DNA of 64,000 bases from Brucella sp. 21LCYQ03 (lineage in GTDB: Bacteria > Pseudomonadota > Alphaproteobacteria > Rhizobiales > Rhizobiaceae), in assembly GCF_023554105.1 (NCBI RefSeq), contig NZ_JAMJWE010000001.1, positions 186,001 through 250,000 on the forward strand. The letters run 5' to 3'. The notes beneath the pieces were generated by a model. That model made no database searches and had not been told where the DNA came from. It saw only the letters and a program-made list of their open reading frames with translations. Each line of letters starts with the position of its first letter. Position 1 is the stretch's first letter. Below are positions 23,862-35,911 of this stretch, one piece after another. A program made the position numbers and the translations under genes.

Positions 23862-24144
23862 TTTATGCCCCCAGCATTCAATGTAATAATCTTAATATAA
23901 ATCTATATTGTTATAATAGGCATAATTTTTTCCATCTAATTGATTTTACCATTAATATTTAAAATTTTATACTTAATTTTTATTTTTAGTCGGAAATAAC
24001 ATAATCCCGGGATAAAGTTTTGATACGCTGCGCTGATATGTGATTTTGTTGTGCATGGCTGCGGTGCGCGTGTAGCACTTTTACTCGTTCGCGGCTTACC
24101 GCATACTCAGCCCGACTCTGTTCAGGTGATTGAAGGAAACATTG

Positions 24145-24534
24145 ATGATTGATTTGAACGCGCCAAAGGGCATGTTGACCGTGCGTACACAGGCCATGCC
24201 GAATGATACCAACGCAGCGGGCGATATTTTCGGTGGTTGGGTTATGGCGCAGATGGATATTGCAAGTGCTATTCGCGCCTCAGAACGTGCTAAGGGGCGC
24301 GTTGTAACGGCGGCTGTGCGCGAAATGTCGTTTGCGAAGCCGGTCAAGATTGGCGATGTACTTTGTGTTTATACGGAAATTACGCGTGTTGGTCGCACGT
24401 CGATCACGCTGCGCGTGGAGGCATGGGCACAGCGCTATCTCGCAGAAGAGATGGATCTGGTGACGCATGGCGAGTTCGTGATGGTCGCGCTCGACAAGAC
24501 CGGTCAGCCAACACCGGTTCCTGCGGAATCGTGA
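24145..24534 (+). CDS. Acyl-CoA thioesterase, YciA type
   Basis: A 129-residue hot-dog fold thioesterase that hydrolyses acyl-CoA in the cytoplasm. The signature is PNDTNAAGDIFGGWVMAQMD, with the conserved Asn/Asp region and central helix; RVVTAAVREMSFAKPVKIGD and TEITRVGRTSITLRVEAW (quoted in parts) complete the domain. The ATG at 24145 has AAGGAAAC upstream; the TTG at 24130 is not needed. Upstream 23862-24144 is notably AT-rich with no gene. Preferred chain length cannot be told. Confidence 0.9.
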   Translation: MIDLNAPKGMLTVRTQAMPNDTNAAGDIFGGWVMAQMDIASAIRASERAKGRVVTAAVREMSFAKPVKIGDVLCVYTEITRVGRTSITLRVEAWAQRYLAEEMDLVTHGEFVMVALDKTGQPTPVPAES

Positions 24535-32305: not shown

Positions 32306-33280
32306 ATGTCACAGCGTCACGCGCCCGTTATCATCATCGGCTCAGGTCCGGCGGGTTATACCGCCGCAATCTATGCAGCGCGCGCGATGCTTAAACCGAT
32401 CATCATCACGGGTTTGCAGCAGGGCGGTCAGCTGATGATCACCACTGATGTTGAAAACTATCCGGGCTATGCGGAACCTGTTCAGGGTCCATGGATGATG
32501 GAGCAGATGGCGACGCAGGCTGAGAAAGTCGGTGCCGAAATTCTTTATGACATCATCACTGAAGTTGACACTCAATCGCGTCCCTTCCGCCTGATCGGCG
32601 ATGGCGGCACGGTTTATACCTGTGATGCTCTGATTATCGCAACTGGTGCACAGGCCAAGTGGCTTGGCCTGGAAAGCGAACAGACCTTTATGGGCGGCGG
32701 CGTTTCAGCTTGTGCCACCTGTGACGGCTTCTTCTATCGCGGCAAGGATGTTGTGGTTGTTGGCGGCGGCAATACGGCTGTCGAAGAAGCGCTTTATCTC
32801 TCGCATATCGCAAAGAGCGTGACTGTTGTTCATCGCCGCGAAGGCTTCCGCGCTGAAAAGATCATGCAGGACCGTCTGCTGTCGCGCGACAACGTTAAGG
32901 TCGTTTGGAACAGCGTGATCGATGAAATCGTCGGCACCGAAGCCAAGCCGCCAGTGGGCGCGACCGTGACTGGCGTGCGTCTTAAGAATATTGTCACGGG
33001 CGAAACGCATGTTCACGACGCGCATGGTGTTTTCATCGCTATCGGCCATGCTCCTGCCGTTTCTTTGTTCGAAGGTAAGCTCAAGCAGAAGCCAAACGGC
33101 TATCTTTGGACTGCGCCTGATTCGACGGCGACGGATGTTCCGGGCATTTTTGCTGCTGGTGACGTCACCGATGATATTTACCGGCAGGCAGTGACTGCCG
33201 CTGGTATGGGCTGCATGGCGGCGCTTGAATCCGAGCGCTATCTGGCTGCACAGGAACCGCTGCACGAAGCTGCGGAGTAA
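32306..33280 (+). CDS. trxB: Thioredoxin-disulfide reductase
   Basis: A 324-residue NADPH-dependent flavoenzyme that reduces thioredoxin. FAD motif IIGSGPAGYTAA at about 10, redox pair C136-A-T-C139 in SACATCDGF, NADPH motif VVVGGGNTAVEEALYL, and C-terminal GIFAAGDVTDDIYRQAVTAA (quoted as one block of twenty) are all present. Start at 32306 has GGAG nine bases upstream. vtlR follows after 15 bases, so the two likely form an operon. Confidence 0.97.
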   Translation: MSQRHAPVIIIGSGPAGYTAAIYAARAMLKPIIITGLQQGGQLMITTDVENYPGYAEPVQGPWMMEQMATQAEKVGAEILYDIITEVDTQSRPFRLIGDGGTVYTCDALIIATGAQAKWLGLESEQTFMGGGVSACATCDGFFYRGKDVVVVGGGNTAVEEALYLSHIAKSVTVVHRREGFRAEKIMQDRLLSRDNVKVVWNSVIDEIVGTEAKPPVGATVTGVRLKNIVTGETHVHDAHGVFIAIGHAPAVSLFEGKLKQKPNGYLWTAPDSTATDVPGIFAAGDVTDDIYRQAVTAAGMGCMAALESERYLAAQEPLHEAAE

Positions 33281-33295: not shown

Positions 33296-34201
33296 GTGGT
33301 CGCACCACTCGACTGGGATAAACTGCGCATATTTCATGCCGCCGCAGAAGCGGGGTCGTTTACCCATGCCGCACAGACTCTGCATCTGTCGCAGTCAGCT
33401 ATTTCGCGCCAGGTTAGTGCGTTGGAACAGGATGTGGGAGTTCCCTTGTTCCATCGCCATGCACGTGGCCTTATTCTGACGGAACAGGGCGAAACGCTCT
33501 ATCGCACAGCGCATGATGTGCTGATGAAGCTCGAAAATGTGCGTTCCAAGCTTGCAGAGAGCAAGGAAAAGCCGACGGGTCGCCTGCGTGTGACCACAAC
33601 GGTTGGTCTTGGCTCTGGCTGGCTGATTGAGCGCATTCAGGAGTTCGTTGAGCTTTATCCGGATATTCAGTTGCAGCTTATCCTCGACAATGAGGAACTG
33701 GATCTGACCATGCGTCATGCGGATTGCGCAATTCGTTTGCGCCAGCCGCAGCAGCCGGACCTGATCCAGCGTCGTCTGTTCACCGTGCATATGCACGTCT
33801 ACGCATCGGCGGGATATGTTTCCAAGCATGGAAAGCTCAATTCTATTGACGAAATTGACCAGCATCGCGTGGTGACGTTTGGTGAGCCTGCGCCAAGCTA
33901 TCTGACAGGGTTGAACTGGTTGGAAGTCGCAGGTCGCACAGATGGAAGCTCACGTATTCCTGTCTTGCAGGTCAATAATCTTCTGTCGGTGCGTCGTGCT
34001 GTGCAGCGCGGCGTCGGCATGGCGGTTCTGCCTGATTACATGGCCGACAAGGAATCCGGTCTGGTGCAGTTGTTGCCTGATCTTGAGGAAATTCCGTCCT
34101 TCGATACGTTCTTCTGTTACCCGGAAGCGTTGAAGAATTCGGCCAAGCTTCATGCTTTCCGTGACTTCCTGTTTTCAAAGGCGCGTAACTGGACCTATTG
34201 A
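33296..34201 (+). CDS. vtlR: LysR-family regulator VtlR/LsrB
   Basis: A 301-residue LysR regulator. N-terminal helix-turn-helix: DWDKLRIFHAAAEAGSFTH, then LHLSQSAISRQVSALEQDVG (about 30-50); the effector domain spans about 95-295. The sequence and its place directly after trxB match Brucella VtlR and Sinorhizobium/Agrobacterium LsrB. In Brucella abortus VtlR is needed for virulence and activates the sRNA AbcR2 as well as small DUF1127-type genes; LsrB links to oxidative stress and LPS. GTG start at 33296 with a strong GAGAGGGGG ribosome site. It is followed by a terminator, then by the sRNA gene it probably controls. Confidence 0.9.
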   Translation: MVAPLDWDKLRIFHAAAEAGSFTHAAQTLHLSQSAISRQVSALEQDVGVPLFHRHARGLILTEQGETLYRTAHDVLMKLENVRSKLAESKEKPTGRLRVTTTVGLGSGWLIERIQEFVELYPDIQLQLILDNEELDLTMRHADCAIRLRQPQQPDLIQRRLFTVHMHVYASAGYVSKHGKLNSIDEIDQHRVVTFGEPAPSYLTGLNWLEVAGRTDGSSRIPVLQVNNLLSVRRAVQRGVGMAVLPDYMADKESGLVQLLPDLEEIPSFDTFFCYPEALKNSAKLHAFRDFLFSKARNWTY

Positions 34202-34219
34202 TCTGTCCTGATGGTTTTT

Positions 34220-34253
34220 AAAAGGTCGCGTAGGTTTCTTACGCGGCTTTTTT
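34220..34253 (+). terminator. Terminator of trxB-vtlR
   Basis: AAAAGGTCGCGTA pairs with TACGCGGCTTTT around GGTTTCT, followed by T. Confidence 0.85.
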
Positions 34254-34401
34254 GTTTCTTAAAGAAAGTGATTTGCTGTTTTTCGCGGCATATCGAAGCT
34301 GTTGATGCCTTATGTTTAGGCGATCTATTTTGAAGTTTTATGGAATGCTAGTATTTTGGTTAACAGGTAAGATATTGAAAATATTAATTTTTTTTAGAAA
34401 T

Positions 34402-34430
34402 GACAGCTATGCAAGAATTGCATAGCTGTC
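34402..34430. promoter_or_regulatory. Perfect palindrome with T-N11-A: candidate VtlR operator
   Basis: A 13-bp perfect inverted repeat GACAGCTATGCAA-gaa-TTGCATAGCTGTC. Its core TGCAAGAATTGCA is a LysR T-N11-A box (T at 34410, A at 34422). The centre is about 67 bases before the predicted start of the AbcR sRNA, the usual place for a LysR activation site. The regulator gene vtlR lies just upstream. Binding is inferred. Confidence 0.7.
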
Positions 34431-34446
34431 TTGTGATAAAGTTGAG

Positions 34447-34477
34447 TTGCAAAAACAATAATCACAAGGCATATAAG
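34447..34477 (+). promoter_or_regulatory. Predicted promoter of the AbcR sRNA
   Basis: -35-like TTGCAA at 34447-34452 and -10-like CATATA (34470-34475, spacer 17) or TATAAG (34472-34477). Transcription would begin about 34482-34484. Confidence 0.55.
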
Positions 34478-34482
34478 AAACA

Positions 34483-34595
34483 TCTTAGCGCTGCGTTTCT
34501 CCTCCCATTTGCGCGCGCTGAGTGTTCCCCTCTGGAGGTTTGCCTCAATGGCACCTTCAAAACTCAAAGCCAGACACTTGTCTGGCTTTTTTTTT
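34483..34595 (+). ncRNA. abcR2: AbcR-family trans-acting small RNA (alpha-r15 family)
   Basis: About 113 nt in the vtlR-aspartate aminotransferase gap, the place where AbcR RNAs lie in rhizobia. It has the two C-rich unpaired anti-Shine-Dalgarno seeds typical of AbcR, CTCCCATTT (34502) and TTCCCCTCT (34525), then a small GCC-tcaat-GGC hairpin and a canonical terminator AGCCAGAC-actt-GTCTGGCT with eight T (34568-34595). AbcR RNAs bind Hfq and lower translation of ABC-transporter periplasmic proteins. Only one copy is present here; in some genera two lie in tandem. The 5' end is estimated from the promoter, and the 1/2 numbering from the vtlR linkage. Confidence 0.82.

Positions 34596-34684: not shown

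Positions 34685-35911
<1,227 letters not shown>

What the first reader, a model, noticed from the sequence alone, without database searches (positions are those of the whole stretch)
34402..34595. AbcR small RNA preceded by a perfect LysR T-N11-A palindrome, next to vtlR
Seen: a 13-bp perfect inverted repeat with TGCAAGAATTGCA at its core, a promoter-like TTGCAA/CATATA, two C-rich anti-Shine-Dalgarno seeds and a canonical terminator, all between vtlR/lsrB and an aspartate aminotransferase gene. Known: in Brucella VtlR activates AbcR2; in rhizobia AbcR genes lie in this gap. Inference: the palindrome is the VtlR site at about -67. The clean T-N11-A box would be a strong definition of the VtlR operator and may let one find the rest of the regulon.
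Basis: partly seen in the sequence, partly recalled or inferred. Interest (0 to 1): 0.72.

Follow-up and report, generated by a model that had tools for sequence, protein, structure and literature searches.

The report
AbcR small RNA with VtlR operator
This is the known AbcR small RNA beside its known activator gene vtlR; the perfect palindrome is one strain's version of a binding site largely described before, and comparing it across relatives gives a sharper definition of that site and suggests a new target, the pyruvate dehydrogenase genes.

Summary
Window 34483-34594 is an AbcR (alpha-r15) RNA by Rfam (70.7 bits, cut-off 40), 282 nt after a LysR-type gene with a trxB-like gene upstream (vtlR/lsrB), with both AbcR seeds and a terminator. 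The 29-bp palindrome (34402-34430) is real and, of seven such repeats in the window, the only one not terminator-like.

VtlR control of AbcR and two box forms (GCAT-N3-TG-N3-T; TGCA-N6-GCAT) are in print; this site matches both. But arms of 10 bp or more occur in 1 of 86 AbcR promoters compared, the window's own. The T-N11-A half at its exact spacing is clade-restricted (58 of 86). The commonest unit is a 15-bp dyad, GCA-N9-TGC, centred 11 bp downstream (80 of 86; the window ends TGT).

That dyad also precedes ar14 RNAs, 13 of 14 DUF1127-ar14 loci examined and, unexpectedly, pdhA (24 of 29 loci within one mismatch; shuffles 0.09). VtlR binding there is inferred, not shown. So: an ordinary new member, with a sharper operator and one new candidate target.

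The parts
32306..33280 (+). trxB-like gene (pyridine nucleotide-disulphide oxidoreductase), upstream neighbour of vtlR
   Evidence: ORF, Pfam Pyr_redox_2; trxB upstream of vtlR is the published order
33296..34201 (+). vtlR/lsrB, LysR-type regulator, 301 aa, GTG start
   Evidence: ORF; Pfam HTH_1 and LysR_substrate; the best 80 of 564 relatives found were kept, 70-98% identical in the best segment
34220..34256 (+). Terminator-like hairpin after vtlR, so the palindrome probably lies outside the vtlR message
   Evidence: Inverted repeat I5 (85% complementary) followed by a T run; termination is an inference
34402..34430 (.).
   Evidence: conservation
34410..34423 (+). TGCA-N6-GCAT (T-N11-A), the form published for the S. 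meliloti nfeR1 promoter
   Evidence: published motif in PMC10746234
34420..34434 (+). VtlR box in the frame of the 15-bp dyad GCA-N9-TGC, centre 34427 (-56); matches GCAT-N3-TG-N3-T at 34420-34432; the downstream end reads TGT here
   Evidence: published 13-bp form in PMC7486931 and PMC8844928
34400..34412 (-). Mirror copy of the published 13-bp box (GCATAGCTGTCAT); its inner half is the conserved upstream half-site
34447..34475 (+). Sigma-70-like promoter TTGCAA-N17-CATATA
   Evidence: the aligned region in relatives is
34483..34594 (+). AbcR (alpha-r15) small RNA; AbcR2 in Brucella naming
   Evidence: Rfam RF02345, 70.7 bits, positions 1-112 of 112; fold -45.5 kcal/mol; AbcR2 by its place beside vtlR (PMC12595884)
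34502..34507 (+). Seed M1, CUCCCA
   Evidence: motif from PMC5461406
34524..34529 (+). Seed M2, GUUCCC
   Evidence: motif from PMC5461406
34566..34594 (+). Intrinsic terminator of AbcR
   Evidence: Inverted repeat I7 plus T run
34685..35887 (-). Class I/II aminotransferase, convergent neighbour
   Evidence: ORF, Pfam Aminotran_1_2

Best explanation
The stretch is the AbcR2-type small RNA gene with the operator through which the neighbouring VtlR activates it. VtlR, as a LysR-type dimer or tetramer, reads TGC/GCA half-sites. Here it faces a dyad centred at 34427 (-56), intact in its upstream half (GCATAGCT) and decayed at its downstream end (TGT for TGC), plus an extra half-site 10 bp upstream (TGC at 34410-34412). 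The two intact halves face each other and, with strain-specific outer bases, make the perfect palindrome. Bound VtlR recruits RNA polymerase to TTGCAA-N17-CATATA, and AbcR then silences ABC-transporter and other mRNAs through its CUCCCA and GUUCCC seeds. Shown here: the RNA family, the gene, the boxes and their conservation. Inferred: binding, activation, the oligomer, the start at 34483 and the targets.
For: RF02345 match. LysR domains and gene order. Both published box forms in place and near the published distance. GCA-N9-TGC in 80 of 86 AbcR promoters, against a mean of 0.4 in 90 shuffled 32-mers; TGC-N7-GCA in 58 of 59 promoters of the genus/Falsochrobactrum, Phyllobacterium-side and Bartonella sets. 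The genome's other AbcR copy has neither box within 220 nt before its seed, as expected since in B. abortus abcR2 but not abcR1 is under VtlR. Published gel shifts, northern blots and reporter fusions show VtlR/LsrB acting on such promoters in A. tumefaciens and S. meliloti (passages).
Against: No binding or transcript data were available for this strain. The window's own dyad is incomplete (TGT), so it fails the exact 15-bp form. In some searches the box was placed by its best match to a consensus within 26 nt, which favours its bases, and the shuffle control there keeps base composition only. The T-N11-A half at its exact spacing is missing in two of five groups, so it is not needed everywhere.
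Confidence: 0.9

Rival explanations
1. One reading: the T-N11-A palindrome centred at -67 is itself the complete VtlR operator, and the published 13-bp box is only its right arm plus neighbours.
For: TGC-N7-GCA is kept in 58 of 86 promoters; 9 of the 19 Mesorhizobium-side promoters have a TGC at N6 (4) or N8 (5) instead, so a half-site there may be kept with looser spacing; L126, dropped for length, has ATGC-N7-GCAT; TGCA-N6-GCAT was mutated in PnfeR1 with loss of LsrB binding.
Against: 0 of 8 Pseudochrobactrum/Paenochrobactrum promoters keep it at any spacing from N5 to N9 and 0 of 19 on the Mesorhizobium side at N7, while 8 of 8 and 18 of 19 keep GCA-N9-TGC. Three of seven box promoters in this genome have no such half at N7 on either side of the dyad.
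Confidence: 0.17
2. The palindrome is an RNA or DNA hairpin (terminator, attenuator, repeat element) and not a protein site.
For: A 46-nt stretch with it folds at -20.5 kcal/mol as RNA.
Against: No T run follows it on either strand; a separate terminator-like hairpin follows vtlR before it; perfect 8-bp arms are kept in only 12 of 86 promoters, so pairing is not preserved while the half-site letters are.
Confidence: 0.03
3. The dyad at pdhA, and perhaps at some other places, belongs to another LysR-type regulator with a similar box; VtlR acts only at the AbcR, ar14 and DUF1127 promoters.
For: Each of the 28 genomes tested has 16 to 84 matches to VtlR, so many LysR-type genes, and no genome tested lacked VtlR, so co-occurrence could not separate the two. 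Many pdhA boxes read GCATGNCAGCCATGC, unlike the usual AbcR form. A search for a published link found none.
Against: Same half-sites, same 15-bp frame and, in this genome, nearly the same distance from box centre to a TAT(A/T) element (41 nt for pdhA; 42, 42, 42 and 45 for four others; two further box promoters have no such element).
Confidence: 0.4

Closest known systems
AbcR1/AbcR2, alpha-r15 small RNAs (Rfam RF02345)
   Same: Full-length model match, both seeds, terminator, place beside vtlR
   Different: Nothing of note; a single copy beside vtlR and one elsewhere, as in Brucella, not the tandem pair of Agrobacterium and Sinorhizobium (arrangements from PMC5461406)
VtlR/LsrB box GCAT-N3-TG-N3-T (PMC7486931, PMC8844928)
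   Same: Present at 34420-34432, near the published distance
   Different: Relatives show it as part of a symmetric 15-mer GCA-N9-TGC, whose last base differs here
LsrB motif TGCA-N6-GCAT of the nfeR1 promoter (PMC10746234)
   Different: Here lengthened, in this strain only among 86, into a 29-bp perfect palindrome
CIN1 loci: DUF1127 gene with CcsR-like (cuckoo) RNAs (PMC10253847, passages, citing Reinkensmeier and Giegerich 2015)
   Same: Two DUF1127 genes of this genome have an ar14 RNA just downstream
   Different: Here they are preceded by the VtlR-type dyad; the Rhodobacter locus is described with an RpoHI/RpoHII promoter

Membership tests
AbcR / alpha-r15 (RF02345) | Covariance model at or above the gathering score | tested here: met
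   70.7 bits against 40, positions 1-112
AbcR / alpha-r15 (RF02345) | Seeds CUCCCA and GUUCCC, terminator | tested here: met
   seeds from PMC5461406
AbcR / alpha-r15 (RF02345) | Hfq binding and silencing of ABC-transporter mRNAs | not testable with these tools
   No RNA or protein data for this strain
VtlR/LsrB | LysR-type HTH and substrate domains, gene between trxB and abcR | tested here: met
   order as in PMC12595884 and PMC7486931. Not aligned with the B. abortus or S. meliloti proteins by name
VtlR/LsrB operator | GCAT-N3-TG-N3-T near -61 to -49 | tested here: met
   34420-34432, -63 to -51 counted from 34483
VtlR/LsrB operator | TGCA-N6-GCAT (T-N11-A) | tested here: met
   34410-34423
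VtlR/LsrB operator | Symmetric GCA-N9-TGC (proposed here) | tested here: not met
   34420-34434 reads GCATAGCTGTCTTGT; the last base differs. 80 of 86 AbcR promoters meet it
VtlR/LsrB operator | Binding by VtlR and VtlR-dependent transcription | not testable with these tools
   Needs gel shift and a regulator mutant

The most novel reading that the evidence does not exclude
VtlR/LsrB recognises a symmetric 15-bp dyad GCA-N9-TGC (best form GCATNNCWGNNATGC), often with one extra half-site 7 nt away, and through it runs one switch across the Rhizobiales: AbcR, stand-alone ar14 RNAs, DUF1127 genes whose 3' ends carry ar14 RNAs, and the pyruvate dehydrogenase operon. Redox sensing by LsrB would then set both the entry of carbon into the TCA cycle and a bank of anti-Shine-Dalgarno RNAs that close nutrient uptake.
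Probability: 0.45. Interest if true: 0.68.

Novelty: new member of a known kind. Interest (0 to 1): 0.42.

Why it matters
The locus itself confirms what is known. Its use is as a key: comparing it across relatives turns a loose 13-bp asymmetric box into a symmetric 15-bp one that can be searched, ties the DUF1127 genes known to depend on VtlR in Brucella to the ar14 RNAs known to depend on LsrB in S. meliloti, and points to pdhA. If pdhA is a target, part of the broad carbon phenotype of vtlR mutants (impaired growth on glucose, fucose and erythritol; PMC12595884, abstract passage seen) would have a direct explanation that can be tested at once.

Tried and rejected
Rejected: hairpin or terminator (no T run, arms not preserved). 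Palindrome as a repeat family: patterns of its core gave no second palindrome of this length in the part listed; one other exact pattern hit, C334:216811, was not followed, and one search's list of two-mismatch hits was cut. Co-occurrence of VtlR with the pdhA dyad: uninformative, since 28 of 28 genomes had VtlR at 64-96% identity. The window site 24053-24067 before a thioesterase-superfamily gene has the dyad but, by eye on the printout, no TATA-like element at the usual distance; left as noise. Structure prediction and fold search were not used.

Limits of the counts. one search kept the best 80 of 564 vtlR relatives. Of these 80, 14 had no AbcR core (a text pattern) within 3 kb downstream. 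Three promoter rows (L117, L126, first copy in L119) were dropped for short upstream sequence: L126 and that L119 copy have GCA-N9-TGC, L117 does not, and L126 also has the T-N11-A half. 96 promoters gave 90 distinct ones; 4 (L144, L145, L147, L150) were set apart as extra copies, 2 of them with the dyad; the remaining 86 include the second and third AbcR copies of L119, of which the second is the one Mesorhizobium-side miss. Grouping is by locus number and record title; L073 (Brucella endophytica) sits in the Phyllobacterium-side set. Reversed-pattern controls of the genome scans (12 against 44 strand-hits; 32 against 66; 31 against 45, per strand; 2 against 28) differ from the pattern in dinucleotide make-up and are weak. 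The pdhA pattern was settled after looking at the same loci, so 24 of 29 is not an independent test; the 29 include the window's own genome; L212 was dropped because its match was not the ftsB end; loci were fetched for 30 of the 34 genomes with a match, of 81 searched. ar14 counts rest on 30 loci from 30 of the 60 genomes with a match. DUF1127-like ORFs were called by a text pattern, and their start codons for the distances were chosen by me. Shuffles keep base composition only. In one search, coding means any ORF of 100 aa or more, so a few of the 26 'coding' places (ORFs of 109-145 aa) may be intergenic.

Full report
What is there. Window 33296-34201 encodes a 301-aa LysR-type regulator (Pfam HTH_1, LysR_substrate) directly after a thioredoxin-reductase-like gene (Pfam Pyr_redox_2). 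[quoted passage not shown] The genome (4.59 Mb, 621 contigs) has one more ar15 copy, on another contig. The nearest relatives by VtlR (97-98% identical) are records titled Brucella, Ochrobactrum or Rhizobiales bacterium.

Is the palindrome more than chance? Yes. Of seven perfect inverted repeats with arms of 13 or more and gaps of at most 12 in the window, it is the only one without the look of a terminator, and 20 dinucleotide shuffles gave none.

What is already in print. All papers were seen as passages found by terms, not read whole. In B. abortus, abcR2 but not abcR1 is under VtlR (PMC5461406). VtlR positively regulates AbcR2 and three small DUF1127 proteins in B. melitensis, as in B. abortus (PMC12595884). 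In A. tumefaciens VtlR binds the abcR1, atu1667 and vrsA promoters, with a proposed box GCAT-N3-TG-N3-T that was used there for a genome search (PMC7486931). In S. meliloti LsrB binds and activates abcR1, with that box at -61 to -49 and T-N11-A motifs noted in tandem upstream in most sequences (PMC8844928), and it binds nfeR1, an alpha-r14 RNA, at TGCA-N6-GCAT; point mutations there prevent binding (PMC10746234). The window matches both box forms. So the finding's central claim is largely known.

What the comparison adds. From the 80 vtlR loci kept and 30 genus loci I took 90 distinct AbcR promoters; 86 are counted and 4 set apart as extra copies. Counts: GCA-N9-TGC in 80 of 86 (24 of 29 in the genus and Falsochrobactrum, 8 of 8 Pseudochrobactrum/Paenochrobactrum, 20 of 20 Phyllobacterium and neighbours, 10 of 10 Bartonella, 18 of 19 Mesorhizobium and others); the published 13-bp box in 75 of 86; the T-N11-A half, TGC-N7-GCA, in 58 of 86 (28 of 29, 0 of 8, 20 of 20, 10 of 10, 0 of 19); perfect arms of 8 bp in 12 of 86 and of 10 bp in 1 of 86, the window. 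Against a simple absence of the half-site on the Mesorhizobium side, 4 of those 19 have a TGC at N6 and 5 at N8. Shuffled 32-mers hold GCA-N9-TGC in 0.4 of 90 on average. The window's dyad ends in TGT, as do four other distinct genus promoters (L056, L061, L066, L164).

Own genome. GCATNNCWGNNNTGC has 44 strand-hits at 35 places, against 12 strand-hits for the reversed control pattern, a weak control. At 9 of the 35 places no ORF of 100 aa or more covers the site. Six of those nine lie before DUF1127 genes (three), ar14 RNAs (two) and pdhA (one). The other three are the window site at 24053, one between an FAD oxidoreductase gene and an AsnC/Lrp-type regulator gene (L230), and L269. In four of these six, and in AbcR, a TAT(A/T) element begins 41-45 nt after the box centre; the two C334 promoters have none there. 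Four of the seven promoters, AbcR included, also have the N7-spaced extra half-site: upstream in AbcR and C223 DUF1127, downstream in C334 DUF1127 and pdhA. The second AbcR copy has no box within 220 nt before its seed. Seven DUF1127 matches exist in the genome; only these three have the dyad within the 350 nt I printed or in the scans.

ar14 and DUF1127. Of 30 ar14 loci from 30 genomes of the family, 14 have GCA-N3-CWG-N3-TGC within 400 nt upstream (shuffles 0.16 of 30). Three are at -49/-50, one at -89, and ten at -242 to -309 with a DUF1127-like ORF between. Of the 14 loci with such an ORF, 13 have the box when 800 nt are read; L255 does not. The box centre lies 90-117 nt before the ATG in the ten loci measured. 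Of the 16 loci without such an ORF, 4 have the box within 400 nt. The link of DUF1127 genes with CcsR-like RNAs is known as the CIN1 locus (PMC10253847). In the listings no paper holds DUF1127, VtlR or LsrB, and alpha-r14, NfeR1 or CcsR all together. Subscription papers, among them those cited on the Brucella small proteins and on LsrB-controlled RNAs in Agrobacterium, could not be read.

pdhA. The dyad GCATAGCAGCTATGC lies between a septum formation initiator gene (Pfam DivIC; ftsB by inference) and an E1 dehydrogenase gene (Pfam E1_dh; pdhA by inference). In 29 loci of the family, the window's genome included, 24 have GCATNNCWGNNATGC with at most one mismatch within 260 nt around and after the ftsB end, 15 without any, against 0.09 and 0.00 in shuffles; in most of these genomes BLAST aligned only the ftsB end of the query. 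Five have 2-4 mismatches (L203, L204, L213, L217, L218). The listings for pyruvate dehydrogenase with LsrB and for pdhA in S. meliloti with LysR show no paper on such control; PMC11975290 has no hit for pyruvate or pdh in its main text. A 2000 paper on symbiotic induction of these genes is cited in PMC8844928 (title seen in its reference list) and was not read. That VtlR reads this element is an inference from likeness; 28 of 28 genomes tested have VtlR, also those without a good dyad, so presence and absence could not decide.

Verdict. AbcR beside vtlR is secure by homology; VtlR control is well supported by published work on orthologues; the perfect palindrome is a strain's variant and not the operator's definition. 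The dyad and its targets are the part worth following.

Noticed in passing
G000:C223:263336-263350 (L052, L272): Perfect VtlR-type dyad GCATAGCAGCTATGC before a pyruvate dehydrogenase E1 gene, kept within one mismatch in 24 of 29 loci of the family
   Followed up: partly
L133 (C223:222.3-222.7 kb), L134 (C445:191.2-191.6 kb): DUF1127 genes with VtlR-type dyads upstream and ar14 RNAs with repeated CTCCTCCC stretches downstream; L133 has a further such stretch before the ar14 match
   Followed up: partly
Window 34201-34483 against L053-L065, L077, L100: vtlR and AbcR are 282 nt apart here, but 14 of 80 named loci (12 of them titled Brucella, Ochrobactrum or Rhizobiales bacterium, 2 Bartonella) show no AbcR core within 3 kb of vtlR, and L056 and L066 have it about 1.3 kb away: material may have been gained or lost between them
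   Followed up: no
L144, L145, L146, L147, L150: Some genus genomes have three ar15 matches; the promoters of L144 and L145 (L146 has the same) show a GCA-N9-TGC dyad though no vtlR motif was found in the 1.5 kb around them
   Followed up: no
L002 (C445:196.8 kb): The second AbcR copy has no VtlR box; its TTGAA...CCATAT stretch resembles the RpoH1-type promoter published for S. meliloti AbcR2
   Followed up: partly
Window 24053-24067: GCATGGCTGCGGTGC dyad before a thioesterase-superfamily gene (24130-24534); no TATA-like element seen at the usual distance
   Followed up: partly
L136 (C334:85.05-85.3 kb): A third box-preceded DUF1127 gene, with the nearest ar14 match 2.6 kb away and no -10 element at the usual place; B. 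melitensis has a fourth DUF1127 gene that goes up in a vtlR mutant (PMC12595884), which may or may not be its counterpart
   Followed up: no
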